Virus record (IMG/VR): IMGVR_UViG_3300010430_004505
Span: 1-26,808 of that record
DNA length: 26,808 nucleotides
From: a virus
Reading direction: 5' to 3' (one strand)
The notes beneath the pieces were generated by a model. That model did not search any database. It was not told the DNA's origin and worked only from the letters and a program-made list of their open reading frames with translations. Below, piece by piece: positions 5,433-26,454 of the stretch; the stretch's first letter is position 1, and every line of letters begins with the position of its first letter. A program made the position numbers and the translations under genes.

Positions 5433-5873
5433 TCAGCTTGAACTGCGCTTATTCTTGCGAGCTTTACGCTTTCTTTGAACAATCTCAAGCTCCTTGCCCG
5501 CGAGATTCTGACTTCTCGGCACCCATAACAAGTGGGCACGCTCAAATACTTTATTAATGTGGCTAAGATGGGTATTAACCACTTGAATAGCTCTTTTAAT
5601 ATGAACATCTCTTACTTTCCAATCTCCATTAACTTGGTTCTTCACAAGCTGTGAATCTGTTTTAATGCGTATCTTATCCCTATGTTTAGTATTCTCTTTA
5701 ATCCACGCTAATGAATGAATAAGTGCTTTATATTCCATTTGATTATTAGTGTGCTTACCTTCATAGTAGTGATAACCTATAGCTATCTCTTTCCCAGCAT
5801 TATCAGTAACAATGAAACAAGTCTCACCGATGGTAGCATTATTACTACCACCGTCTACATAGATTGTATACAT
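5433..5873 (-). CDS. rnhA: Ribonuclease HI-like protein
   Basis: A 146-residue protein of about the size of RNase HI, which cuts the RNA strand of RNA-DNA hybrids and can remove primers during phage replication. The fold motifs are present in order: YVDGGSNNA with catalytic D7, NNQMEYKAL with E47, TDSQLVKNQVNG with D73, and the late WVPRSQN motif near residue 115. The usual fourth carboxylate (N..AD.LA) reads NLAGKEL here, with Gly in place of Asp, and the protein ends in a basic run. Three of four metal ligands remain, so activity is uncertain. It starts two bases away from the upstream membrane-protein gene's stop, clearly in one operon. Confidence 0.85.
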   Translation of the reverse strand: MYTIYVDGGSNNATIGETCFIVTDNAGKEIAIGYHYYEGKHTNNQMEYKALIHSLAWIKENTKHRDKIRIKTDSQLVKNQVNGDWKVRDVHIKRAIQVVNTHLSHINKVFERAHLLWVPRSQNLAGKELEIVQRKRKARKNKRSSS

Positions 5874-13407: not shown

Positions 13408-14826
13408 ATGCCACCTAACAAGAGTTCTAAGTCGAGGGTAAAAGATTTTATCAAACTTAGAAAAGGTCTGCCTCCAGTCGATTACAAGTTTTTACAAAAG
13501 GTCTGTCGGGCTCCCGTCTCTTATTTTAAGATTCACGGGGATTACGGACTAACTCCAGGCGGTCCCCTTATCTATAAAGATAATGGTTCAGACGTCTTGG
13601 CAGTTGCCCACCTAGGTATAGTTGAGAAAGCTCGACACTTTTCAACTACCAAATTATCGCACGATGAGTATGTCAACTGCCCTACCCTTAACGGGCGTAT
13701 GGGAGCATATACCATTTTGCAACATCTCAAAAGAATGGATATAGTCCCCGACATCCTGCTAACTACAGGCGGGGATAAGTGTCAGAGTACAGCAATGTAT
13801 TTCACACCTCCGAAGGGTAAGACATATAACTGGGTCTTTTCCTTTGATAATGAAGGAGGAGACGTGGCTTTATATGAATATTTTGACTGGGAGATGAGAA
13901 CTATTTTAGAAAGAGCAGGATGGAAGGTGAATCACGGGGACTATAGTTGTATAGCCGAGTTGGAACACATGAGAGTTAAGGGCTTTAACTTTGGTTGTGG
14001 TATCGAAGATGCCCATAGCTTAGATGCTAGGGTTTCTCTCAATACTTATCTTACGAGCATGAAAAAGTTCGAGAGATTTTACAAACAAAACTTTAACACT
14101 CACTATCCTCATTTACCAAAATATAATATATGGACTCAAGATGAAGGGTTCGCTTTTATTCATAAACCAGGAGCTGTGCCTTATCAGGATACTTTCACAG
14201 AAGAAGAAATCGAGCTCATAGAGCATATCGATAATGATAATTTAGTGCCAGACCATATGACTAGAATAACACCTTTTGATATTAAAGAGACCATACACCA
14301 CCGCGAGAACATCGCAAAACAACATTTCGTAACTGAACCATCACTCTTTGATGATGTTGGAGTGGATAAACAGAAAAACAAGGAGAAGGAAACTTCAAAG
14401 GAACAAGCCTCAGGGATTAAGTTAACTGGAGAAATCGAGTTAACATTTGAGGAGACAAGTTCCGTAGTACATCCGGGAAGTGAAGATGACCCAGATGGAA
14501 GCCTGATGCAGGCCCGTAAGCCTGACGAAACAGTTCGTGTTATTCATTCTGACTCAGAGGACTTAGAGAAAGCTATCAAACTAGCGGAGCAAGAAGAATC
14601 GAAAGGTAAACAAACCATAGGTCCCACGATTAACTCAAATCAAAGAGAAAACAAATCATCTAATTTTATCATTGTTAAACCTAAGGGACGAGTAGTAAGT
14701 ATTATACCATTAGGAAAGATAACAGAAGATGAACAAGAATATGACTACATCCAGCGAGACGACGGAGTTTGGGAGTGGAGACCAGTTAAGCGACTCAAAA
14801 CCGCAGAAACTGAGCTCGTCTTCTAA
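13408..14826 (+). CDS. M28/M20-like metallopeptidase fold, metal ligands degenerate
   Basis: A 472-residue protein. The first 250 residues follow the plan of M20/M28/M42-type zinc hydrolases: VLAVAHLGIV (about 64-73), NGRMGAYTILQHLKRM (about 94-109), ILLTTGGDKCQSTA (about 116-129), YNWVFSFDNEGGDVALY and GIEDAHSLDA (about 198-207). The usual zinc ligands are H-x-D, D-x-R/G, D-E-E and a late H. Here the first Asp is Gly, the bridging Asp is Asn, and the Glu pair is Gly-Gly; only His positions and one Asp remain. Catalysis by the usual mechanism is therefore unlikely. Residues 260-472 form an acidic, probably flexible extension not found in simple M28 enzymes. A strong GGAGG site precedes the ATG. 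Confidence 0.6.
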   Translation: MPPNKSSKSRVKDFIKLRKGLPPVDYKFLQKVCRAPVSYFKIHGDYGLTPGGPLIYKDNGSDVLAVAHLGIVEKARHFSTTKLSHDEYVNCPTLNGRMGAYTILQHLKRMDIVPDILLTTGGDKCQSTAMYFTPPKGKTYNWVFSFDNEGGDVALYEYFDWEMRTILERAGWKVNHGDYSCIAELEHMRVKGFNFGCGIEDAHSLDARVSLNTYLTSMKKFERFYKQNFNTHYPHLPKYNIWTQDEGFAFIHKPGAVPYQDTFTEEEIELIEHIDNDNLVPDHMTRITPFDIKETIHHRENIAKQHFVTEPSLFDDVGVDKQKNKEKETSKEQASGIKLTGEIELTFEETSSVVHPGSEDDPDGSLMQARKPDETVRVIHSDSEDLEKAIKLAEQEESKGKQTIGPTINSNQRENKSSNFIIVKPKGRVVSIIPLGKITEDEQEYDYIQRDDGVWEWRPVKRLKTAETELVF

Positions 14827-14842
14827 GACACTCCACCACCTC

Positions 14843-15382
14843 ATGCTTGAACAACTACTATTAAACACAGAGTTAGAAGAAAGCGGGGGAGATATTACTG
14901 ATGGGCAAGACTTAATTTGGCTATCGAAAGATATAGAGATTAAGGATAAGCTTGATTCTTACGGATACCTAATTGATGAGCTAGCCGCCGAGAAAAAGAA
15001 ATTGGCTTATATTAAGGCTAATGGCGTCCAAAGAGTCTCAGAGGCAACACGAAGAGTTGAGAAGCTCACTCAGAAGCTAAAGTCCAGGCTTAATTATCTC
15101 TCTAAAGGTGAGCCCTTAAAAGGGCATTTATATTCGTTTCACCCATTTAATTCAAAAACGCGCACTGCCGATGTTGAAAAACTATCATCAAGTGAGACTT
15201 ACCTCACGATAGAAATAAGGCAAGACTATTGGAATGACCTGATTACGGCGTGGAATACGGAATCGCCAAGACAGGGAGCAATTCCTCACTCTATCAAGAA
15301 GAGAGCTGGGAAGGTATCGGAACTCCCCGAAGACCACTCAGCTATAGAAACGGTTTTAACTCCGAGCGTGCGAGTAAGTTGA
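14843..15382 (+). CDS. Siphovirus Gp157-like protein
   Basis: A 179-residue protein (counted from 14843) that shows the Gp157 family pattern: a short helical start (LEQLLLNTELEESGGDITDG), then IKDKLDSYGYLIDELAAEKK and a long coiled coil of alternating Glu, Arg and Lys (RVEKLTQKLKSRLNYLSKGE), and finally a beta strand HLYSFHPFNSKTRTADVEKL. The family is best known from streptococcal phages, where its members occur in replication modules. The start is not certain: no ribosome-binding site precedes 14843, but a longer frame from 14729 would overlap the previous gene by 98 bp with low-complexity Ser/Thr sequence. A translationally coupled start is likely. Confidence 0.6.
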   Translation: MLEQLLLNTELEESGGDITDGQDLIWLSKDIEIKDKLDSYGYLIDELAAEKKKLAYIKANGVQRVSEATRRVEKLTQKLKSRLNYLSKGEPLKGHLYSFHPFNSKTRTADVEKLSSSETYLTIEIRQDYWNDLITAWNTESPRQGAIPHSIKKRAGKVSELPEDHSAIETVLTPSVRVS

Positions 15383-15478
15383 CCCCACAGGGGCTCAAGG
15401 TGTTGATAGCCATAGAGTCCATAGGACATATCGTTATCATTTAGTATGCTATCACATTAGAAGTATTCTCAGTGACGA

Positions 15479-15551
15479 GCGCCACGAATTGTCGGCAAGG
15501 GTCTAGTTAGACACAGTAACCACCATAATTGTTGGTCTGTGCATTTGGCGC
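15479..15551 (+). ncRNA. Three-way-junction RNA element abutting the second tRNA
   Basis: GCGCCA (15479-15484) pairs with TGGCGC (15546-15551). Inside are the hairpin GTCT-AGTT-AGAC (15501-15512) and a longer one, CACAG...CTGTG with inner ACCA/TGGT (15512-15541). The closing stem shares four bases with the tRNA's 5' end, so the two foldings exclude each other. Sequence from 15383 to 15478 has no gene or clear structure except a CCCC-ACA-GGGG hairpin near 15384. Confidence 0.45.
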
Positions 15552-15677
15552 GGTTCGTCTAGCGGAGCTATGGAGATGATTTCCAGTCATATCGTCTGAT
15601 ATCAGAAAGGACAATCAAGCAAGGACATTAGGCCCCTCAACCTGATAACTGGGGTTCGAATCCCTGACCGCGCACCA
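15548..15677 (+). tRNA. tRNA-like gene with a ~54-nt D-loop insertion
   Basis: The acceptor GCGCGGT/ACCGCGC is perfect (7 bp) and followed by an encoded ACCA. The T-arm is TGGGG-TTCGAAT-CCCTG and the linker TC. The D-stem GTCT pairs with GGAC, but between AGCGG (15561-15565) and GGAC (15623-15626) the D-loop is 62 nt instead of about 8. The anticodon arm is TTAGG/CCTGA with an eight-base loop, CCCCTCAA. Compared with tRNA-Glu (GTCTAG, TAAC, TTCGAAT), the anticodon may be CTC, but U33 is missing and the loop is one base too long. The inserted stretch can form ATATC-GTCT-GATAT. It could be an interrupted tRNA or a tRNA-derived element. Confidence 0.65.
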
Positions 15678-15703
15678 ATCCATTAATCAAGAAAGGAATC
15701 AAA

Positions 15704-16234
15704 ATGAAACTACAGGATTGTTTCTTTGTACGTTCAACCTTAGCTGATTTAACGCAAACTGAAAGGGAAAACTTCGATGGCAATAGATATGTAGGGTGTT
15801 ATGCACTTTACATACCCGTAGACCTTAAAGACTATGGCCCACTTAGAATAGCTGGAACAACCGTAGATATAGGAGATATGGTTCTTATTAGGTCTTGGGA
15901 AGCTCCCTATTCTTATAGCAACGATAAATTAGGTCAGTTCAGGGTAGGCCCAATACATTCTCTTGACCCACAAGACTTTAGGAATAATGTTAATGCAGAG
16001 AATTTTATGATTATTCCAAGAGATAAGCAAGGGCTTATTGATGAATATAATAAGGCAATCGAGGCAGCTGAGGAGATAGATAAACGAATAGGGTGGATGG
16101 AAGCTCGAGGGGAAAAGCAATTTTCTGAGAAAGATTACAAGACAGAGGAAATTATTTTAGCCCTAGATTGTGGGCTTTCAGAGGAAAATGAGGACAAATT
16201 GAAAGATTTACTAAAAATAAACATAAAAATTTAA
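15704..16234 (+). CDS. Hypothetical protein, 176 aa
   Basis: A soluble protein of no recognised family. The N-terminal 110 residues look like a beta-barrel (TVDIGDMVLIRSWEAPYSYS, QFRVGPIHSL). The C-terminal part is helical and charged (YNKAIEAAEEIDKRIGWMEA) and ends in a Lys/Ile stretch. AAAGGAA precedes the ATG. It lies between the tRNA and the late promoter, apart from both replication and head modules. Function unknown. Confidence 0.6.
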   Translation: MKLQDCFFVRSTLADLTQTERENFDGNRYVGCYALYIPVDLKDYGPLRIAGTTVDIGDMVLIRSWEAPYSYSNDKLGQFRVGPIHSLDPQDFRNNVNAENFMIIPRDKQGLIDEYNKAIEAAEEIDKRIGWMEARGEKQFSEKDYKTEEIILALDCGLSEENEDKLKDLLKINIKI

Positions 16235-16242
16235 CAACAGTA

Positions 16243-16271
16243 TTGACTTTTACTGTCCTTTTGATTATATT
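16243..16271 (+). promoter_or_regulatory. Late sigma-70 type promoter
   Basis: TTGACT (16243-16248), 17 bp, then TATATT (16266-16271). It lies just after the preceding stop codon and about 120 bp before the portal start, with nothing coding in between, so it should drive the head operon. No copy of the early GGCGTCGTACTT motif is present here. Confidence 0.7.
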
Positions 16272-16340
16272 CCCGCGCGAGCGGAAAATATTTTATTCTA
16301 TAGTATCGGCATCTCTGGTTCATTTCCCGCGCCATCGGGA
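16270..16340 (+). repeat. Paired GC-rich inverted repeats, operator-like
   Basis: TTCCCGCGC-GA-GCGG (16270-16284) and TTCCCGCGC-CA-TCGGG (16324-16339) are near-identical words spaced 54 bp apart, each able to form a hairpin. The first overlaps the end of the -10 box and the likely start of transcription. Such a pair is typical of repressor operators that may loop DNA; the second also lies inside the leader hairpin. Confidence 0.5.
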
Positions 16341-16358
16341 TTCTCCTACCAGAGGTGC
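16309..16358 (+). promoter_or_regulatory. Structured leader of the head operon
   Basis: GCATCTCTGGT pairs with ACCAGAGGTGC over 11 bp (one G-U). Inside it TCCCG pairs with CGGGA around CGCCAT. Downstream lies TTGGTACTTAATC and seven or more T (16372-16379), so the structure could act as a terminator or attenuator 10 bp before the portal ribosome-binding site. Confidence 0.55.
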
Positions 16359-16388
16359 TTGGTACTTAATCTTTTTTTTAGGGAAGCA

Positions 16389-18377
16389 ATGATAAAATTT
16401 TATAGAGCCCCAAGGTACATCCATAACAATTATGTGTCCTGGAAAAGTGACACTAAATATGGTAGAAAAACGTTTATTAATAGGGCAGAGGACTCAGAAG
16501 AGAAATACTTTAACGATGTGGATGATACAGGGACTACTTTTACCAGTAGCCAATATGGACGTATATTGGAAACTACAGGGATGCCGTTCTCGGCGAATCT
16601 TATACAACCAGTAGCTAATCAGAAGCTTGCAATCTTAACTCAGACTAAGCCTTCGACTAAGGTTATGTCCTTAGACGGTAGAGCTAAGCAACATGCAGCG
16701 GTCTTAGATAAGATGAAGTTTGCTGTAATGTATCACGGTAAGGCTCAAATGGAAATAGAGTCTATGATTAGGGATATGCTCATAACAGGAATGGGCCATC
16801 TCATGGTAGTGCCTATGAGCGCATATCAAGGTGGGCTATTTAATACTGGCATAACCTATGTCCCATTTGATGAAGTTATACTTGATATAAATGCTAAGAA
16901 GAAAAGCTTAGAAGATATGGAAGGTTTCTTTATAGAGAAAGCGTTCACAGAACCTAAGTTCTTAATTCTATACGCAGATATTATGGCTAACCTTACTGAC
17001 CCAGCTACAGGTGAACCTGTCAGCCATAAGACTTTTACTAATACAACTTGGATGGAAGATAGGTTATCAGATAAGCAAAAGGTTACCACTACTATGTGGA
17101 ACCAAGACAACTTTGTTGTTGTCAGAGAGTATTACGAAAAGATTTTTAGTACTATGTATGTAGTACCAAATCCTGAGACAGGTATATACCAATACTTATT
17201 CCAGGAGAATATGGACCTAGACCAAGAGAGTTTATTATCGATGGCAGTACAAACCTTTCCAGGTATGTACATCAAGAAGACACTTGTATTCGGTGATTTT
17301 GTAACGTGGGAAGAAACTATGCCCGTAACAACCTGGCCACTTGTGACTTCATTCTTCGAGTGGGGAGGTCGCCCATATCGTTCATATGGAATGGTGCATT
17401 TTACTAAAGGCATGTCAGATGCCTTCGAGAAATCTATGCAGATAATGGTTCTCAATGGAATCCTTGCCAATAACTCCGGCTGGAAAGCCCCTAAAGGCTC
17501 AATTGCCGAGGAGGATAGACCTAAATGGGAAGATTATGCTAATAATCCTAGAGTTATCAAAGAGTATGTACCAGTGGTCAGGGAAGGGCAGGTATTTATA
17601 CCAGAGAGAGAAACCCCAGCTCAGATTGGGAACTTCTTTCCTTACCTTCTAGACTTATTGAAAAGTGGTATAGAATACTCTACGGGTATAACCCCTATAC
17701 TTCAGGGTGATGCTAGTGAGAGTGGAGTTGAAGTATTCAGCTCATTACAGCAATATCAGAACGCTGCGATGCAGCGGATTATGCTAAGTACTACACATAT
17801 AAACCAGACTATGGTTGACCTTGGTCAGGTTCTTATAGAGTACTTAACTTATAATATTGGCCCTGAGAACTATACATTCTTTGATGAAAAGGGTAACCTA
17901 AACGAATTAGACCTAGCAAAAGAAATTGCTAATGATATTAAGTTGCATAGGTATTTATCGGTAGCAGTGCCTTCAACAGCAATGCCTACCCAGAGATTAG
18001 CCACAGCAACAGAGCTTATGAAAATAGCTCAATCATCTCCTGACCCTGTAGAGCGTAGCCTGTATACACAGACCGCCATGGACTTGTCGGAGATACGAGA
18101 GTTTGACGATTTACGTGAGAAACTGGATGTAGTTAAGAAAACAAATGCTCAACTGGCGCAACTACAACAGGCTTACGAAAGACTAGAGGAAACATCAAAA
18201 CAGATGGAAAATAAATATATCAACATATCCCTCGAGAATAGGATTCTTAAGCAAATGATGGGTAAAGAAAAGCAGATAGCGGAAGCTTATGCTAAGATGG
18301 AAACTAAAATATCAATTGCTGAAGACCTTGCGAACAAGGATTCGCAGGACAAACAAAAACCGAAAGAAGGTAAATAA
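16389..18377 (+). CDS. Portal (head-tail connector) protein
   Basis: A 662-residue protein of portal size and pattern. The dodecameric portal sits at one capsid vertex and is the DNA channel. Recognisable stretches are the N-terminal RAEDSEEKYFNDVDDTGTTF and ANLIQPVANQKLAILTQ, a central beta region, and the conserved late EYSTGITPILQGDASESGVE followed by long helices (SLQQYQNAAMQRIM). A coiled-coil tail rich in Gln/Lys/Glu covers about residues 575-662. It resembles the large portals of podovirus-like phages, though tail type is not certain. The start is the ATG behind AGGGAAG; an upstream TTG lies in the leader hairpin. It ends in a TAATG overlap with the scaffold-like gene. Confidence 0.75.
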   Translation: MIKFYRAPRYIHNNYVSWKSDTKYGRKTFINRAEDSEEKYFNDVDDTGTTFTSSQYGRILETTGMPFSANLIQPVANQKLAILTQTKPSTKVMSLDGRAKQHAAVLDKMKFAVMYHGKAQMEIESMIRDMLITGMGHLMVVPMSAYQGGLFNTGITYVPFDEVILDINAKKKSLEDMEGFFIEKAFTEPKFLILYADIMANLTDPATGEPVSHKTFTNTTWMEDRLSDKQKVTTTMWNQDNFVVVREYYEKIFSTMYVVPNPETGIYQYLFQENMDLDQESLLSMAVQTFPGMYIKKTLVFGDFVTWEETMPVTTWPLVTSFFEWGGRPYRSYGMVHFTKGMSDAFEKSMQIMVLNGILANNSGWKAPKGSIAEEDRPKWEDYANNPRVIKEYVPVVREGQVFIPERETPAQIGNFFPYLLDLLKSGIEYSTGITPILQGDASESGVEVFSSLQQYQNAAMQRIMLSTTHINQTMVDLGQVLIEYLTYNIGPENYTFFDEKGNLNELDLAKEIANDIKLHRYLSVAVPSTAMPTQRLATATELMKIAQSSPDPVERSLYTQTAMDLSEIREFDDLREKLDVVKKTNAQLAQLQQAYERLEETSKQMENKYINISLENRILKQMMGKEKQIAEAYAKMETKISIAEDLANKDSQDKQKPKEGK

Positions 18378-19237
18378 TGCCAGAAAACACATCTACTAAT
18401 GCCGCGACATCTGACTCTTCGATAGACATAGACGCTATCTTCGGACCAGAGCCAGGTAGTGAAGGCTTAAAAGATGCAGTTGACACGCCATCGGGTAACG
18501 ATGGTTTACCTCCAGTAGAGTCTGAAATCTTCGACGGAGTAACGAACGTCGGACGAACAAACTTTAAGGGACAAGATAATACGCCTAGAAACCCTCAGGA
18601 AGTGATTGCGCGATTACAATCTGAGAGAGATAAGGCGCTGTCCCAAGTGAAAGATTGGGAAACTCAGGCCTCCAACTGGAAAACTGCAAACGATTTCCTA
18701 GGAGAGCTTGAATCAGATGCTGATGTCAGACGTGCATTTATGCACGAATTGGACCCTGAATTAGTTAAACCAAAGAACCCTTATAGTCTTATTAAAGAGA
18801 CGCTCGGGGAAGAGTTTAAGGACTTTACTCCTAATCCTGATGAAGCGAATGTATTTGGGTCGAAGACCTGGATGTACAACCAGAGAGCTAATGACCTCTT
18901 AACAGAGGCCAAAACTAAATGGGCCATACCTGAATCCTTAAAGGGTCTCAGGGAAAAGCGTAAGAAAGATTCAGATACAGCTAATGCTGCAGCTTTGAAA
19001 GAAAAGCAAGATATAATGACGGGCATGAGCTGGGATGATAATACATGGAGCGGATTTGCTACGTGGATGCAGTCTTCGAAAGGAGAGGATTTCGCAAAAA
19101 TCTATTCTTATATCTTACGTAAAGGTGGAAAAAAACCAGGTAACTTAGCGACTCAAAGAGGATATAATATTAATAGTAACGCCGCTGGTCATTTCTCAGA
19201 ACTTGACCCATTTTTTGGCGTTACCAATCCACATTAA
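18377..19237 (+). CDS. Putative capsid scaffolding protein
   Basis: A 286-residue, acidic and largely helical protein between portal and major capsid protein, coupled to the portal gene by TAATG. That position and composition fit a scaffold. A disordered Ser/Thr/Asp-rich start (SDSSIDIDAIFGPEPGSEG) is followed by a helical region with a coiled-coil stretch (VIARLQSERDKALSQVKDWE) and a more conserved C-terminal part (MSWDDNTWSGFATWMQSSKG). Scaffolds have little sequence conservation, so this is a call from context. An alternative is a head protein of another role. Confidence 0.6.
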   Translation: MPENTSTNAATSDSSIDIDAIFGPEPGSEGLKDAVDTPSGNDGLPPVESEIFDGVTNVGRTNFKGQDNTPRNPQEVIARLQSERDKALSQVKDWETQASNWKTANDFLGELESDADVRRAFMHELDPELVKPKNPYSLIKETLGEEFKDFTPNPDEANVFGSKTWMYNQRANDLLTEAKTKWAIPESLKGLREKRKKDSDTANAAALKEKQDIMTGMSWDDNTWSGFATWMQSSKGEDFAKIYSYILRKGGKKPGNLATQRGYNINSNAAGHFSELDPFFGVTNPH

Positions 19238-19255: not shown

Positions 19256-20629
19256 ATGCCAACTGCTAATGATTATACAATTACGTATTATCAAGGGCAA
19301 CCTGTCGTAGACAATATTCCTAGTACGTTTAGGGAGTATGACCGAAGAACTGCGCTGTTAACTTACATCTCAGAAGGTCGTGCTAACTTACTTAGACTAC
19401 TTTGGGAATATGCTCGTCGTTCTGGCGCATATGTATGCCGTGACACTGAAAGTCGCTGGGGTATCGAATATGGAAGGCTTGCAAAAATCTTTCATGCTGC
19501 AGATTCAGAAGAATCTTCAGGAAGCGATGACCTTAACGATATCTTCGTACTCACAAATGCTGAGGCAAGAAGATTACAACCTAGTGATATACTCAATAAT
19601 ATGGGTTTCTGGGTTAAGATGGACGCGTCCACGGGACGTACAATGGCTGCTGGAACTGGTGAAGGAATCAGAGCTAAAACCTCTGTTTACTCACTACCAG
19701 AGCAGGTAAAGGTTGTAGAGAATTTTGGAGATGACTCCCACAGTGCTGGTAAGACTAAAATAAGAGTTCGTAGAAACTTTGGTGGAGCAGCCCCAACAGG
19801 CGTCGGCCATGCAGATACTACGGTTGACTTATCAAGTCCAAGCCCAGCATACTCTACAGATGTCGGCGTTCCATTCTTATGGAAAGCTGGTAACTCTATC
19901 CCAGAAGGTCGCGATGACCAATGGACATACAATGATGTTGATGAATACGATTACAATTATGCTCAGATAGTTATGAGAAAGTGGTCAGCCACTGAAACAG
20001 AGCAGAATGTAGACCGTTTCTTCACTAGAGAAAAAACCTTTCAGAGAAATGCAAGACGGACCCTTGAAGAGTTTGCTAGAGAACTTGATTCTATAGCAAC
20101 TTTTGGAACAAGAAAAACTGAAACAGAGAATGGTCGTAGAAAATGGTACACTGGCGGAATCTTGGAATTCATTCCTGAATCCAACAAAATACCTTATGAC
20201 GATTCATTGTTCCAGACTAAAAACTTTAACAACCAGCTAAAGGATATGTTCTACTATGGCTCTCAGACCAAACTAGTCCTCTGCGGTGCTGATTTCTATA
20301 CGAAATTCAGCAATATGATTGATAACAAAATCGTACTTCCTGCAGCGGTTAATGGCTGGGGAGTTGAGCTTACAAGATTCTCCGCTACAAACGGTGGAAC
20401 CTTATTGCTTGCTCCTTCTGATACTCTATCCTTACATGGAATGTCAGATTATGCTATCGTAATTGACCCTGCTCACTTTCAGTATGGACACTTGCAGAAC
20501 ATGGACATCAAGACAATTGCTGTCGAAACTGTAAACCCACACGAGATGGAAGGCGAGATTTATGGTCAGATTATATTTAAGAGAACAAATCCACAAGCAC
20601 ATTGGTGCTTTGTAAGTGCTGCTAGCTAA
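19256..20629 (+). CDS. Major capsid protein (HK97-fold-like)
   Basis: A 457-residue protein in the canonical slot after the scaffold. The C-terminal part shows the end of HK97-type capsid proteins of the SU10-like type: LKDMFYYGSQTKLVLCGADF, then GVELTRFSATNGGTLLLAP, YAIVIDPAHFQYGHLQNMDI and EGEIYGQIIFKRTNPQAHWC. The middle has a helix typical of the spine region (NARRTLEEFARELDSIATFG). No N-terminal cleavage site is visible. A GGAG site precedes the ATG and the reading frame is uninterrupted. It forms the capsid shell. Confidence 0.75.
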   Translation: MPTANDYTITYYQGQPVVDNIPSTFREYDRRTALLTYISEGRANLLRLLWEYARRSGAYVCRDTESRWGIEYGRLAKIFHAADSEESSGSDDLNDIFVLTNAEARRLQPSDILNNMGFWVKMDASTGRTMAAGTGEGIRAKTSVYSLPEQVKVVENFGDDSHSAGKTKIRVRRNFGGAAPTGVGHADTTVDLSSPSPAYSTDVGVPFLWKAGNSIPEGRDDQWTYNDVDEYDYNYAQIVMRKWSATETEQNVDRFFTREKTFQRNARRTLEEFARELDSIATFGTRKTETENGRRKWYTGGILEFIPESNKIPYDDSLFQTKNFNNQLKDMFYYGSQTKLVLCGADFYTKFSNMIDNKIVLPAAVNGWGVELTRFSATNGGTLLLAPSDTLSLHGMSDYAIVIDPAHFQYGHLQNMDIKTIAVETVNPHEMEGEIYGQIIFKRTNPQAHWCFVSAAS

Positions 20630-21348: not shown

Positions 21349-22035
21349 ATGGCAACACCCAACTTAATACAGTTAAGTCAGGATTTAGCCTATAAGTTAC
21401 AGGACCCCGCTGGTAGTGGAACGCTACCTGGGGAACGTTGGACTGCAGATGGAAGGCTCGGGTATATCACTCGGGCCTACCGTCGCTTTTATAGGATACT
21501 GACACAGCTCTACCCAGAGCTAACATTTATGGTTTTTAAGTCGAACTACAAAGTAAGGTCGACAGATACCACTGATACCAGTGGAACCTTCGATGTCTCA
21601 GCTTACGAAGAGATATACGAAGTTTTTTGTAAAATGCCCACAGACGAAGAGTGGAATAGGGCGACATATATTACCCCTAAGGATTATGTCAGCACCTTTA
21701 CTGGCTATAGTGATTTCTATACCCCAGATTATAATTCCTCTACTTTTTATTGGAGCGTGATAAGTAATAATATATCTATTTTGCCCCAAATACAGTACTC
21801 AATCTTCTATTCTTATAGAGAAGATGACTCTTCAGACTTCGTCTACAACACAGGAACAGACCTAGTTATGGACCCCACCTTTTGGGATATCCTTCTAAGT
21901 TTAGCTGCCGCTGAAGCATACATGGACATAGGCCAAATGGATATGGTAAATATGTACAAAGCAGATGTTAGTGAACAACTGCAAGTTTTAGCAGTCGATA
22001 AACAACAGAAGGAAAAAACTGATGAAATGGATTAA
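21349..22035 (+). CDS. Head-tail adaptor protein
   Basis: A 228-residue protein in the normal place for a connector or adaptor, after the capsid genes. The start (LIQLSQDLAYKLQDPAGSGT then RWTADGRLGYITRAYRRFYR) is typical of adaptors that dock below the portal; the rest has beta-rich then helical parts (FWDILLSLAAAEAYMDIGQM). The family match is by pattern and place, not by a known motif. It overlaps the next gene by 14 bp. Confidence 0.6.
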   Translation: MATPNLIQLSQDLAYKLQDPAGSGTLPGERWTADGRLGYITRAYRRFYRILTQLYPELTFMVFKSNYKVRSTDTTDTSGTFDVSAYEEIYEVFCKMPTDEEWNRATYITPKDYVSTFTGYSDFYTPDYNSSTFYWSVISNNISILPQIQYSIFYSYREDDSSDFVYNTGTDLVMDPTFWDILLSLAAAEAYMDIGQMDMVNMYKADVSEQLQVLAVDKQQKEKTDEMD

Positions 22036-23833
22036 ATATGTTTTACTTGGGCTTCTCCTTACAACTTTAACTGAACCTATTTTCGCTCAGAAAATAAGGT
22101 TCCCTACTAACGTTAGATATGTAGCGGGAGGTTACACTACAAACAGAACACCATATTTTAATTCCCTAGAGTATACATTAAATAACGTAAAACCCTTCGC
22201 TACCGCAGAAAACCCTTATGTATTTTGGGTTGATAGCGATACTTTACAAATCCATGACTGGGATTCAGTGTTTACTGCATCTGGTCTAACTATGAAAGAT
22301 AGCATTGATATATACTATGTTGCAACAGGCAAGGTTAAATGGGGTGGTTTTGCAGCTCAGGGCACGGGAGGCGGTGGTGGAGCTGTTATTGTCGCTCCAG
22401 AAGGACTTACTACCCATTACAGTCTGTGGACTTGGACCGGTCAGTCTAGTCTTGCCACCTGGCAAACACGTCTGGGACTCAATGCGGACTCTATCGACCT
22501 TAAGCTATGGGAACTCATTGTTTATACCGATTCGGTCTACCTTTATATCGAGAATGATACCCTTAAGTTCAGAGCGGGTTCCTTGTCGGCTAGCGGGTGG
22601 AACCCAGATACAACTACAGTGGTTCGTACCACAGGTAATCAAAGTATAGCTGGTGATAAAACGCATACAGGTGGATTACTAATGGGGGTAGGTGGTTATT
22701 TAAGGTCACCATCTGCTTATAGCGCAAGCTATCATTGGTGGAGAACAGCTAGTGGGTTATATTACTATAACGCAGTAGATACGCTTCTAAACCTATTTAT
22801 TGATAATGAAACTGGTGAGCTAAGCAATGATTCGCTTATTACTTGGCAGAATATAAATGATGCAGTTAAAGATAGTATGTCTACTAAATGGTGGTTACAG
22901 TTCTCACTGGACTCTGACCCAGCGCATAGCGAGGGTAGAATATTCTACGATTCTAGTGCTCATGCTTTATCAGTTTATAATGATGAAAGTGAGGTAAAGC
23001 TAAGTGTAGGCTCAGAGATATATATTAGAGTTTATAATGCAAGCGCTACAGATACCATCTTTAATGGTTATCCTGTGTATCCTTCAGGAGTAGCTGGAGT
23101 AGAAACAGGTGCAGTAAGTATAGCAAAGGCAGATGTCGATGCTACTTCTAATGTAATCGGTTTAGCTACACATGATATTGAACCACAAACATTCGGGTAT
23201 ATAACCAGATTTGGTTATGTGCATGACTTAGTGACAACTGGTATGACGCCAGGCGGAACGGTATATTTATCTGCTACAATAGCAGGAGGTTTAACAACTA
23301 CTAAACCTGATGCCCCAAATACTGCAGTACCCCTTGGTGGGGTCACTAGGGTAGATGATGATTCAGGTTCTGTGTTTATTGTAATGGATAGATTTAATCC
23401 TATCAATGGCTATACAGCCATAGGGTTTGTAGATTCATCTTATACTATAGACCTTACAGTTAGCACTCCTCTACAGATTACAAATGCTAGCAATAACTTA
23501 TTTATAGAGAACTCAGATATAGCGCATGATGTGACTTTATCTGGTGATTCATTAACGCTAGTTGATGCTGGTGTATACATTGGTGTGATAAGCCATAGTT
23601 TCCAGGGAGCTAATACAGGTATATATAAGTTTTTTGCTAAACTAGATGGTACAATTATACCAAATGCTGCAGCTAATAGATTAACCTCGACAGCAGATGT
23701 AGGAAATGTTGGATATAACTTTGCGGTTAAGTGTACTGCAGGACAAGTTCTTACCTTTTGGGTTGAGAACACAAATAGTTCTACAGACGCTACTATGATA
23801 TCTTCAGCTGTGATAGTATATCAGGTGCGGTAA
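22022..23833 (+). CDS. Fibre-like virion protein with a signal peptide
   Basis: A 603-residue protein. Residues 1-22 form a textbook Sec signal peptide (MKWIKYVLLGLLLTTLTEPI, then FAQ). A Gly-rich stretch (GTGGGGGA) near residue 115 precedes a beta-rich body. Residues about 340-455 contain a domain common in phage fibres (NGYPVYPSGVAG, NVIGLATHDI, GGTVYLS, PLGGVTRV). The last 140 residues look like a C1q/TNF-type jelly roll (VYIGVISHSFQGANTGIYKF, GQVLTFWVENTNSSTDATM). This fits receptor binding at the tail. A cleavable signal peptide is not expected on a protein assembled in the cytoplasm. Confidence 0.65.
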   Translation: MKWIKYVLLGLLLTTLTEPIFAQKIRFPTNVRYVAGGYTTNRTPYFNSLEYTLNNVKPFATAENPYVFWVDSDTLQIHDWDSVFTASGLTMKDSIDIYYVATGKVKWGGFAAQGTGGGGGAVIVAPEGLTTHYSLWTWTGQSSLATWQTRLGLNADSIDLKLWELIVYTDSVYLYIENDTLKFRAGSLSASGWNPDTTTVVRTTGNQSIAGDKTHTGGLLMGVGGYLRSPSAYSASYHWWRTASGLYYYNAVDTLLNLFIDNETGELSNDSLITWQNINDAVKDSMSTKWWLQFSLDSDPAHSEGRIFYDSSAHALSVYNDESEVKLSVGSEIYIRVYNASATDTIFNGYPVYPSGVAGVETGAVSIAKADVDATSNVIGLATHDIEPQTFGYITRFGYVHDLVTTGMTPGGTVYLSATIAGGLTTTKPDAPNTAVPLGGVTRVDDDSGSVFIVMDRFNPINGYTAIGFVDSSYTIDLTVSTPLQITNASNNLFIENSDIAHDVTLSGDSLTLVDAGVYIGVISHSFQGANTGIYKFFAKLDGTIIPNAAANRLTSTADVGNVGYNFAVKCTAGQVLTFWVENTNSSTDATMISSAVIVYQVR

Positions 23834-26454
23834 TGAAGAAATTTTTAGCAATATTGTTATTAACAACCACCAGCCTATTTGCACAGATAGGAGGTTCAGG
23901 TACATATGCTGACCCATGGGAAATAAGTACCCCTGGTCAGCTTGACACCGTACGTCTCTTTATCCAAGATAGTACTGGATATAAAATATTTGAGCTTATA
24001 AATGATATTGATTGTGATGGGGTTACTTGGATGGATGGTGACACTTTATTCCAAGGGTACATGCTTGCAGCATCAGATACATTTCAATTTGGTGGCAATA
24101 ATTTTACTATCTCTAATCTTGACTTAAGGTGGGACACTACGGCGCATGCTATAACTGGAACAAAAACTGGGGGGCGTACTGGATTTATTGGTAGAAAGAT
24201 ACAAAGAAGTTATTCAGATGAGGATACCTTATTACATGATATCACTTTCGATAATGTTAGAGCGTTTTGGGATAGCACTCAAACTAATTCTGCTGCCGAA
24301 CAGCCAAGAGGTGCGATAGGAATTGGGGAACTACCATCTAGTTCAACTTTCTGGGCTGAAAATATGCTTTATAATGTTAAGTTTATTAACTGTGTGATAT
24401 GGTGCAATGCACCACTTGCATCTACTGCCAATGGAGTCGCAATAGTTATTGGAAGCCTTGCCGGAGGTAGTGCAGCTAATGGATATTGGGAGTTTATAGA
24501 AGTAGGTGTAGAAAATTGTATATCATATACGTACATAGGTAATCAGTTTAATGGTATGAGAAGTGGTGGTTTTGTTGGTTATCAAACTGCTGGAGCACAA
24601 AAATATACAAGATGTTATGTAAAAGATAGTTATATCTATCAACATATGAACCCTGCAAGATATGAGTTTAGTAAAGGAAGTCTTGGTATTTTTGCTGGTA
24701 TTGTCACTTATGCTAGTATAACCCAAGATTGTTATATGTATGGAAATACTCTTGTAAGTAATGGGACTTATGGTGGTAACTCTGACCCAAGTGAATCTGG
24801 TGGATTCTGTGGGGCACAAACAGGAGGTGGGACTGGGAATGTATCTAGGATATATTTAGCTGGTAATACATATATAAGACAATTTGCTGCTGCTGAAACA
24901 GATTACAATTGTTGGTTTTCTCCTAGGTTCGCAGCTGGGCAGACACTTGTTGAAGACCATTATATAGATACCACTGGTTTAGCTGCAAGTGATTGGAACG
25001 ATTTATATGAGGCTGCAACAGGCTATGCTAATCTAACTAGTGTTGGTGATACAGTTACTTCTCTTAACTCAGCAGAAATGAAGGTTGAAAGCAATCTTAA
25101 CAACTTTAATTTTACTACCACTTGGCGTTATACTGCTGGTATAAATGATGGATTCCCACATCTGTTATGGGAATTACCAGCGATTGAGTTAACTGCTCCA
25201 GCTGGAGGAGAAAGTTTCGCTTATCCAGATACAATTGATATTGAATGGAGTGGTCAGGTTGATACAGCTTTAGTATATTATAGTCTTGATAATGGTTTTA
25301 CTTATACTTTAGCTCCAGTTGACACTATCATTGGTGATACAATATGGATACCAGTTGGGTTAAGTAGTCAAGAGTTTAAGATTAGAATTACTACATTAGA
25401 TAGTGCTTCTGTCAGCTCAAGCGGTACGTTTGAATATTTAGGGGTAACTCAACTTACTATATTAGAGCCTATAGGTGTTACTGGTATAGTAAATGATGGT
25501 ACTTATGCAGATTCTATAGTGGTACAGAGCATCTTAGCTGATTCAGTTAATCTATATTATAGTTTAGATTCTCTTGATTGGGTATTAATAATAGAGAATG
25601 TCCCTCAGCCAGAGACTGTTGATACAGTGTATTACTATTGGGACCCTATCCCTCAAGTGTCTGGTAATATATGGATTAGAGCTACAACAGAGGCTGACAC
25701 AAATAAATATGGTCCATTTGACTCTACCACAGTCGCTTTAAGTGGGGCCATGAGACCTTCTCAACCAGCGATATGTTGGACAAATGGTGGTATTCACAGT
25801 GCATTAAGAAGAGATTTTCGTTTAGATGTAAGTTGTGGTTGGTCTAACCCTACAATTCAATTAGTAACAGGATATGTTAATGATGATGGTGATGGTTTTA
25901 GTCATGTATATGTAGGATGTGCTAATCCTTGTCCTATACCAGTTTGGAGTACAATAGGGCATGTATATATATTCGATGCAGTGGATACAATAGAAACTAC
26001 TTGGACTGAGTTTTATGATGAGGAGGGGACTACAGTTACCTATAAACAAAGATTATATTGGATAGGTGATTCTACATTATATATGAATGACCTGAGGAAT
26101 GACATAGATAGCATTGCTTTAGTGGACCTTTCAACATATTATGCAGCTGTAAGTGGTACTGGTTGGACTGAAAACCCCAGGCTAGGTGTTTATAATGTAC
26201 AATGGTCTAAGATATCGGGTGATACATTAGCGATAAATACAGATTTTGAGAGCTTAAATGATGTTGGATGGGCGCCTAAATTAATCATGACTGGTCAAAG
26301 GATACCTAATGCTCAATATGATGGGATAAGTTATGATTTGTTAGCTGCTCCCCCAAGTGGAGAATATGCAGAAGATATAGTGCTAGCTTATAGCGCTTTT
26401 AGTTACTTAAGATATTATTTTAGAGGAATACATCCAAAAATAAGGAAACATTAA
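23833..26454 (+). CDS. Exported protein: GLUG-type beta repeats and Ig-like domains
   Basis: An 873-residue protein with a signal peptide at residues 1-18 (MKKFLAILLLTTTSLFA, then Q). Residues 20-55 (GGSGTYADPWEISTPGQLDT then FELINDIDCDGVTW) match the 'GT-ADP-xI.t..dL..v.....y.l.nDIDl.g..W' opening of GLUG-type exported proteins, and the section to about 445 continues as a beta-solenoid. Two Ig-like repeats follow: about 450-536 (LTAPAGGESFAYPDTIDIEW) and 540-635 (LTILEPIGVTGIV...). Residues 640-873 form an unrecognised Cys/Trp-rich end. Such architecture is known from surface proteins of Bacteroidota and relatives. It overlaps the previous stop (TAATG), so it belongs to the virion operon and may be an adhesin or fibre. 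Confidence 0.65.
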   Translation: MKKFLAILLLTTTSLFAQIGGSGTYADPWEISTPGQLDTVRLFIQDSTGYKIFELINDIDCDGVTWMDGDTLFQGYMLAASDTFQFGGNNFTISNLDLRWDTTAHAITGTKTGGRTGFIGRKIQRSYSDEDTLLHDITFDNVRAFWDSTQTNSAAEQPRGAIGIGELPSSSTFWAENMLYNVKFINCVIWCNAPLASTANGVAIVIGSLAGGSAANGYWEFIEVGVENCISYTYIGNQFNGMRSGGFVGYQTAGAQKYTRCYVKDSYIYQHMNPARYEFSKGSLGIFAGIVTYASITQDCYMYGNTLVSNGTYGGNSDPSESGGFCGAQTGGGTGNVSRIYLAGNTYIRQFAAAETDYNCWFSPRFAAGQTLVEDHYIDTTGLAASDWNDLYEAATGYANLTSVGDTVTSLNSAEMKVESNLNNFNFTTTWRYTAGINDGFPHLLWELPAIELTAPAGGESFAYPDTIDIEWSGQVDTALVYYSLDNGFTYTLAPVDTIIGDTIWIPVGLSSQEFKIRITTLDSASVSSSGTFEYLGVTQLTILEPIGVTGIVNDGTYADSIVVQSILADSVNLYYSLDSLDWVLIIENVPQPETVDTVYYYWDPIPQVSGNIWIRATTEADTNKYGPFDSTTVALSGAMRPSQPAICWTNGGIHSALRRDFRLDVSCGWSNPTIQLVTGYVNDDGDGFSHVYVGCANPCPIPVWSTIGHVYIFDAVDTIETTWTEFYDEEGTTVTYKQRLYWIGDSTLYMNDLRNDIDSIALVDLSTYYAAVSGTGWTENPRLGVYNVQWSKISGDTLAINTDFESLNDVGWAPKLIMTGQRIPNAQYDGISYDLLAAPPSGEYAEDIVLAYSAFSYLRYYFRGIHPKIRKH

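What the first reader, a model, noticed from the sequence alone, without database searches (positions are those of the whole stretch)
22022..26454. Two consecutive virion-module genes encode Sec signal peptides
Both long proteins after the head-tail adaptor start with typical signal peptides ending FAQ. Virion proteins normally assemble in the cytoplasm and need no export. Either these are host-type adhesins captured by the phage, exported to act on the cell surface, or the phage has an unusual assembly or release strategy.
Basis: partly seen in the sequence, partly recalled or inferred. Interest (0 to 1): 0.65.

Follow-up and report, generated by a model that had tools for sequence, protein, structure and literature searches.

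The report
Phage tail fibres carrying export signals
Two neighbouring tail-fibre-like genes of this uncultured phage start with genuine bacterial export signals, and the same oddity occurs in cultured marine phages whose export-tagged proteins were detected in purified virus particles, so some phages seem to send part of their particle out of the cytoplasm before it is finished.

Summary
P7 (22022-23833) and P8 (23833-26454) have textbook Sec signal peptides (SPs) ending FA|Q. In the one long relative (L018, portal 60% identical) both homologues keep an SP, and three more consecutive SP-bearing genes follow. A third relative (L010) has an SP gene in the same module. For P7 the SP sequence drifts while the domain behind it is conserved. 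Glutamine follows the cleavage site in 7 of 8 SPs, matching the 'Q-rule' of Bacteroidetes signal peptidase I substrates.

In Cellulophaga phages phi10:1, phi18:3 and phi19:1, eleven SP-bearing genes (10 with +1 Q) are annotated as structural from virion MS/MS. Other Cellulophaga phages carry the same lyase body on SP-less proteins.

P7 is a tail fibre by homology, not a captured host adhesin; P8 is a modular protein placed by position. Best reading: tail appendages exported and trimmed, then joined to particles at or after lysis. Export is well supported by sequence; the joining step is inferred. SPs on such phage proteins have been mentioned in passing, but I found no account of an SP-bearing fibre module or its assembly problem. 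AlphaFold models were too poor to use.

The parts
22022..23833 (+). P7: tail-fibre-like protein, 603 aa, with Sec signal peptide
   Evidence: ORF; residues 291-464 match phage tail-fibre proteins; BppL_N motif at 199-218; homologue L018:11037-12389
22022..22087 (+). P7 signal peptide MKWIKYVLLGLLLTTLTEPIFA, cleavage before Gln-23
   Evidence: SP scorer 10.77; corresponding SP in L018 diverged but same architecture
22088..22585 (+). P7 mature N-terminal domain (residues 23 to about 188), the best-conserved part
   Evidence: Dense identity to the L018 homologue across this stretch, in contrast to the diverged SP
22616..22675 (+). Short BppL_N-like motif (phage lower baseplate protein N-terminal domain)
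   Evidence: Pfam PF18338, E 1.1e-6, above its cut-off; weak matches to TP901-1-type baseplate proteins in PDB
22892..23413 (+). P7 domain shared with tail-fibre proteins of phages of other hosts
   Evidence: tblastn to Roseobacter phage CRP-6 (44%), phage zth2-2, Pseudomonas phage Rollin and others; those checked have no SP
23833..26454 (+). P8: 873 aa modular protein with Sec signal peptide; N-terminal body differs between relatives, C-terminal part shared
   Evidence: ORF; homologue L018:12383-14494 shares the SP type and the C-terminal part ending FRGIHPKI.K, but not the long N-terminal body
23833..23883 (+). P8 signal peptide MKKFLAILLLTTTSLFA, cleavage before Gln-18
   Evidence: SP scorer 11.14
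16392..18377 (+). P22-type portal protein (context; ORF listed from 16359)
   Evidence: PF16510 E 1.4e-33; phrog_156 E 7.9e-38; no SP
18377..19237 (+). Probable scaffold protein (context)
   Evidence: Position between portal and capsid genes; no convincing profile hit; no SP
19256..20629 (+). SU10-type major capsid protein (context)
   Evidence: PF17236 E 1.3e-21; 67-72% identical in three relatives; no SP
21349..22035 (+). Adaptor-position protein, 228 aa, overlapping the P7 start by 14 bases (context)
   Evidence: Position and conserved order in L018 and L008; no profile hit; no SP

Best explanation
P7 and P8 are late virion-appendage genes. P7 is a tail fibre; P8 is a fibre-associated or surface-binding protein with exchangeable N-terminal bodies. 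Their products are real substrates of the host Sec pathway. They are threaded out of the cytoplasm, cut by signal peptidase I before a glutamine that is probably cyclised to pyroglutamate, and fold in the periplasm or on the cell surface. Heads and tails assemble in the cytoplasm as usual, and the exported appendages dock by their trimmed N-termini when lysis brings the two compartments together. Shown here: convincing SPs, their conservation, the +1 glutamine, fibre homology of P7, and, in analogous cultured phages, record annotation of SP-bearing proteins as MS/MS-detected structural proteins. Inferred: export and cleavage during infection, docking at or after lysis, and extension of the proteomic evidence to this phage.
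For: SPs sit on 2 consecutive genes here, on 5 consecutive genes in L018 and on 1 in L010; in all three contigs that read far enough past the small gene P5, the module holds an SP gene. In P7 the SP diverges while the mature N-domain is conserved. +1 Gln in 7 of 8 SPs, P about 1.6e-10 at the measured 3% Gln; the Q-rule is published (PMC5837995; PMC10653852). P7 matches tail fibres. In Cellulophaga phages phi10:1 gp91-94, phi18:3 gp85-87 and phi19:1 gp101-104, 11 SP genes, 10 with +1 Gln, are annotated structural from MS/MS. In gp93-type proteins the SP plus first 55 mature residues are 96-100% identical in two phage families, while bodies can be as low as 15-19% identical. The first gene of the cluster has a family-specific mature N-terminus but a shared downstream stretch, as expected if mature N-termini dock.
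Against: No experiment on this phage. The MS/MS annotations do not tell whether N-termini are cleaved, and purified phage can carry envelope debris. Cellulophaga SP proteins are not detectable homologues of P7 or P8. SP-less phages of the same host species carry the same lyase body without export, so export is not required for such a body to work. No protein is known here that would bring fibres and tails together after lysis. Sharing of N-termini between families with different virion core proteins could also mean that they anchor to something other than the tail.
Confidence: 0.5

Rival explanations
1. The exported proteins act on the infected cell, not on the virion: they coat or digest the surface to block superinfection, mask receptors, or loosen capsule before release. 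Their presence in virion preparations is carry-over.
For: SPs and +1 Gln indicate export. Lyase bodies in the Cellulophaga set could act on the cell's own polysaccharide. P. gingivalis phages encode Q-rule SP proteins of unknown function for which surface modification was proposed (PMC10367356). N-termini are shared by phage families with different core virion proteins (PMC8776804).
Against: P7 is a fibre by homology. The genes sit inside the virion module in every phage of the lineage that reads that far. The same set was annotated as structural by MS/MS in three different Cellulophaga phages. P8 and P7 carry no type IX sorting domain, so surface display has no visible route.
Confidence: 0.22
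2. The N-terminal hydrophobic stretch is used uncleaved in the virion, as a docking peg or as a peptide that enters the membrane during infection; the resemblance to a Sec signal is secondary.
For: Virion presence despite an SP would be explained without export. Hydrophobic N-termini on phage capsid proteins are reported, with cleavage by the prohead protease proposed (PMC10367356), and one is seen in BF1-TP2.
Against: A peg would not need a -3/-1 cleavage motif, nor Gln right after it in 7 of 8 and in 10 of 11 cases. In P7 this is the most diverged part of the N-terminal half, whereas docking parts are usually conserved.
Confidence: 0.13
3. P7 and P8 are host-type adhesins captured by the phage and exported as in the host.
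For: P8 is a mosaic with an exchangeable N-terminal body, and many bacterial surface proteins are built that way (inference).
Against: No relative of P7 in 84,980 species genomes (limited by its pattern search); the P7 middle domain is from phage fibres; gene order is conserved in relatives.
Confidence: 0.07
4. The SPs are chance or annotation artefacts (wrong start codons).
For: Metagenomic contig, no expression data.
Against: No other start is available for P7; the homologues in L018 have SPs too; 0.5% false-positive rate of the scorer on internal segments.
Confidence: 0.02

Closest known systems
SP-bearing structural genes of Cellulophaga phages (Assiduviridae phi10:1, phi19:1, Nekkels; Pachyviridae phi18:3, phi19:3, phi13:2, phi46:3; Duneviridae Ingeline)
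   Same: Runs of consecutive virion-module genes, nearly all with an SP followed by Gln; fibre or lyase bodies; three phages with MS/MS virion annotation
   Different: No detectable sequence homology to P7 or P8; different virion genes; phi10:1 and phi19:1 show no Shine-Dalgarno use, unlike the window lineage
Q-rule SP genes of Porphyromonas gingivalis phages, 'Nixviridae' (PMC10367356)
   Same: Phage-encoded proteins with Q-rule signal peptides
   Different: Reported as five genes of unknown function in phages that insert into tRNA genes; not described as tail fibres
Tail fibres of Roseobacter phage CRP-6 and Pseudomonas phage Rollin, and the related protein of Acinetobacter phage phiAC-1
   Same: Share the P7 middle domain
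   Different: No signal peptide at their N-termini
Lyase-bodied structural proteins of Cellulophaga phages phi14:2, phi4:1, phi17:2
   Same: Same body as the SP-bearing gp93-type protein
   Different: Start with SP-less N-terminal domains
SAR or signal-peptide endolysins and spanins
   Same: Phage late proteins using Sec (general knowledge; also PMC7143992, found)
   Different: Lysis proteins, not virion-module fibres; no lysis domain found in P7 or P8

Membership tests
Phage tail fibre or receptor-binding protein (P7) | Homology to known tail-fibre proteins | tested here: met
   Residues 291-464, up to 44% identity; BppL_N motif
Phage tail fibre or receptor-binding protein (P7) | Part of the virion | not testable with these tools
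   No virion proteomics of this uncultured phage
Phage tail fibre or receptor-binding protein (P8) | Homology to known tail-fibre proteins | tested here: not met
   No phage hit, no Pfam, PHROG or PDB hit; assigned by position and module only
Sec/SPI substrate following the Bacteroidetes Q-rule | n-, h-, c-region SP with -3/-1 motif | tested here: met
   with a rule-based scorer; SignalP not available
Sec/SPI substrate following the Bacteroidetes Q-rule | Gln at +1 | tested here: met
   Both window proteins; 7 of 8 in the lineage
Sec/SPI substrate following the Bacteroidetes Q-rule | Cleavage and pyroglutamate in vivo | not testable with these tools
   Needs N-terminal mass spectrometry
SP-bearing virion module as in Cellulophaga phages | Two or more consecutive SP-bearing genes in the virion module | tested here: met
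   2 in window, 5 in L018
SP-bearing virion module as in Cellulophaga phages | Sequence homology to the Cellulophaga proteins | tested here: not met
   No Cellulophaga hit for P7 or P8
Type IX secretion cargo | C-terminal sorting domain | tested here: not met
   No Pfam or NCBIfam hit at the C-termini
Captured host adhesin (P7) | Relatives in bacterial genomes | tested here: not met
   No confirmed relative in genome contigs, limited by pattern seeding

The most novel reading that the evidence does not exclude
Tailed phages of Q-rule bacteria build their particles in two compartments: core head and tail in the cytoplasm, and a set of Sec-exported, signal-peptidase-trimmed, pyroglutamate-capped fibres outside it that are joined at or after lysis. 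This would be an extracytoplasmic step in tailed-phage assembly, present in at least two phage groups without detectable homology in these genes.
Probability: 0.42. Interest if true: 0.85.

Novelty: new variant of a known kind. Interest (0 to 1): 0.62.

Why it matters
Tailed-phage fibres are assumed to be made and attached in the cytoplasm. A conserved run of export-tagged fibre genes, backed by virion proteomic annotation in cultured phages with the same arrangement, makes the question of where fibres are attached directly testable in Cellulophaga baltica. If export is real, it would explain how fibres that bind surface glycans are kept away from core assembly, would give the infected cell a way to alter its own surface before lysis, and would change which phage proteins annotators call secreted host factors. 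It also gives a sequence flag, an SP followed by Gln in a tail module, for finding more.

Tried and rejected
AlphaFold models of P7 and P8 from two-row alignments had pLDDT 32 and 30, so no fold search was run. PDB profile search gave only weak baseplate matches for P7 and nothing for P8. Genome scans with the capsid and P7 alignments found no bacterial relatives, hence no prophage and no host. Phage-collection searches with P8, the L018 homologue of P7 and two further L018 SP proteins found nothing. The portal alignment gave no further long relatives. Type IX cargo was considered and rejected (no sorting domain). Cysteine content is high in P8 (12) but low in most other SP proteins, so disulfides cannot be argued in general. 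crAss001, phi14:2, phi38:1, phi4:1, phi17:2 and phi18:1 served as controls without SPs on the fibre-type proteins examined.

Full report
OBSERVATION. The window is a linear 26.8 kb IMG/VR virus contig. Its right half holds a P22-type portal, a probable scaffold, an SU10-type capsid protein, two small genes and an adaptor-position gene, followed by P7 (22022-23833) and P8 (23833-26454). P7 begins MKWIKYVLLGLLLTTLTEPIFA|Q and P8 begins MKKFLAILLLTTTSLFA|Q. Both are accepted by a rule-based signal peptide scorer that rejects the other intact proteins tested from the same module and accepts only 0.5% of internal segments. P7 has no other usable start before its conserved domain.

RELATIVES. Portal, capsid and P5 searches of viral contigs gave about ten related contigs, but only two others read clearly into the region after P5 and its neighbour. 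L018 (IMGVR_UViG_3300027881_000014, 59.4 kb, portal 60% identical) has homologues of P7 and P8, each with a signal peptide, then three further consecutive signal-peptide genes (14500-14934, 14946-17039, 17039-17803), before two genes without one. L010 (IMGVR_UViG_3300024518_003872) has a signal-peptide gene immediately after P5, MLKKLILTACLCLLGIGVSYG|Q, cut by the contig end. In P7 the signal peptides differ strongly in sequence while the mature domain behind them is well conserved, which is how signal peptides usually evolve. P8 homologues share the signal peptide type and the C-terminal part ending FRGIHPKI.K, but have different N-terminal bodies.

Q-RULE. In Bacteroidetes, most signal peptidase I substrates have glutamine right after the cut, later cyclised to pyroglutamate; the mean species value is 71%, most Chlorobi are below 9%, and Ignavibacterium album reaches 77% (PMC5837995; PMC10653852). 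Seven of the eight signal peptides in this lineage have +1 Gln; with 3% Gln in these proteins the chance is about 1.6e-10. This says that the sequences are tuned to a real peptidase pathway, not merely hydrophobic. The window, L018's contig and L010 also have Shine-Dalgarno-like sites before 50-56% of long ORFs against 7-8% background, while Cellulophaga phages phi10:1, phi14:2 and phi19:1 are near background. The host may therefore be a Q-rule bacterium outside the typical Bacteroidia and Flavobacteriia, for example Ignavibacteriota (inference).

WHAT THE PROTEINS ARE. P7 residues 291-464 match tail-fibre proteins of phages of other hosts. Those examined have no signal peptide. A short BppL_N motif of lactococcal phage baseplate proteins scores above its Pfam cut-off, with weak agreement in PDB. 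P7 is therefore a tail fibre by homology. P8 has no convincing hit anywhere and is assigned by position and modular build. Neither has a type IX sorting domain. The structure models failed.

CULTURED ANALOGUES. Scanning annotated Bacteroidota phages gave the most useful result. Cellulophaga phage phi10:1 gp91-94, phi19:1 gp101-104 and phi18:3 gp85-87 are consecutive signal-peptide genes annotated in their records as structural proteins 'based on experimental MS/MS proteomics analysis'. Ten of these eleven have +1 Gln. phi19:3, phi13:2, phi46:3, Nekkels and Ingeline have the same arrangement. In contrast crAss001, phi14:2, phi38:1, phi4:1, phi17:2 and phi18:1 have none on the fibre-type proteins examined. 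The lyase body of phi10:1 gp93 occurs in phi14:2, phi17:2 and phi4:1 on proteins that start without a signal peptide. So the same kind of body is used with and without export.

MODULARITY. In gp93-type proteins the signal peptide and first 55 mature residues are 96-100% identical between Assiduviridae and Pachyviridae, while bodies can fall to 15-19% identity. The first gene of the cluster has an N-terminus specific to each family but a shared stretch further on. Bartlau et al. report that core proteins are mostly not shared between these families (PMC8776804). One reading is a chain: the first fibre docks to the family-specific tail through its trimmed N-terminus, and the others dock to the first. 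This is inference.

MECHANISM. The simplest account that respects the signal peptides, the Q-rule and the virion proteomic annotation is export, cleavage and capping, then docking at or after lysis. Export is inferred from sequence; virion presence is supported only for the Cellulophaga analogues and only by record annotation; docking time is inferred. The main rival is action on the infected cell surface with carry-over into virion preparations. An uncleaved hydrophobic peg is less likely because the cleavage motif and +1 Gln are kept.

KNOWN OR NEW. Prior notice exists: five Q-rule signal-peptide genes of unknown function in P. gingivalis phages (PMC10367356), and lyase-containing proteins 'also carrying signaling peptides' in Ingeline and Nekkels (PMC8776804). 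A survey of phage DGR target proteins found no signal peptides and took that as support for phage origin (PMC6199706). In the searchable library I found no paper that describes a run of signal-peptide tail-fibre genes in virions or asks how they reach the particle. The primary proteomics paper for the Cellulophaga phages is not held, so it may comment on this. The feature is a new variant of a known kind: tail fibres with a Sec signal.

Noticed in passing
L025 19113-20549 (Bacteroides phage BF1-TP2, DUF5309 capsid protein): The annotated capsid-type protein starts with a signal-peptide-like segment, MRSKSFFNYLGGLVLTVLAVMLGATTGCG; capsid signal peptides were also reported for P. gingivalis phages (PMC10367356).
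   Followed up: no
window, L010 and G004 (L021-L023): Strong Shine-Dalgarno-like sites in this lineage against near-background levels in Cellulophaga phages phi10:1, phi14:2 and phi19:1, despite a shared +1 Gln pattern; points to a host outside the typical Bacteroidia and Flavobacteriia.
   Followed up: partly
window 23833-26454: P8 has 12 cysteines, unlike the other virion-module proteins of the window (0-3), including close pairs 187/191 and 696/700; could form disulfides outside the cytoplasm.
   Followed up: partly
window 5433-5870, minus strand: RNase H gene (PF00075, E 3e-11) in the leftward gene block.
   Followed up: no
L002 (IMGVR_UViG_3300010392_002526): An 11.5 kb contig whose portal, capsid, P5, P7 and P8 products are 100% identical to those of the window; it ends at about the same place, so it does not extend the sequence.
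   Followed up: yes
L018 17803-18504: A second adaptor-like protein without a signal peptide closes the signal-peptide cluster; the cluster thus sits between two adaptor-position genes.
   Followed up: no
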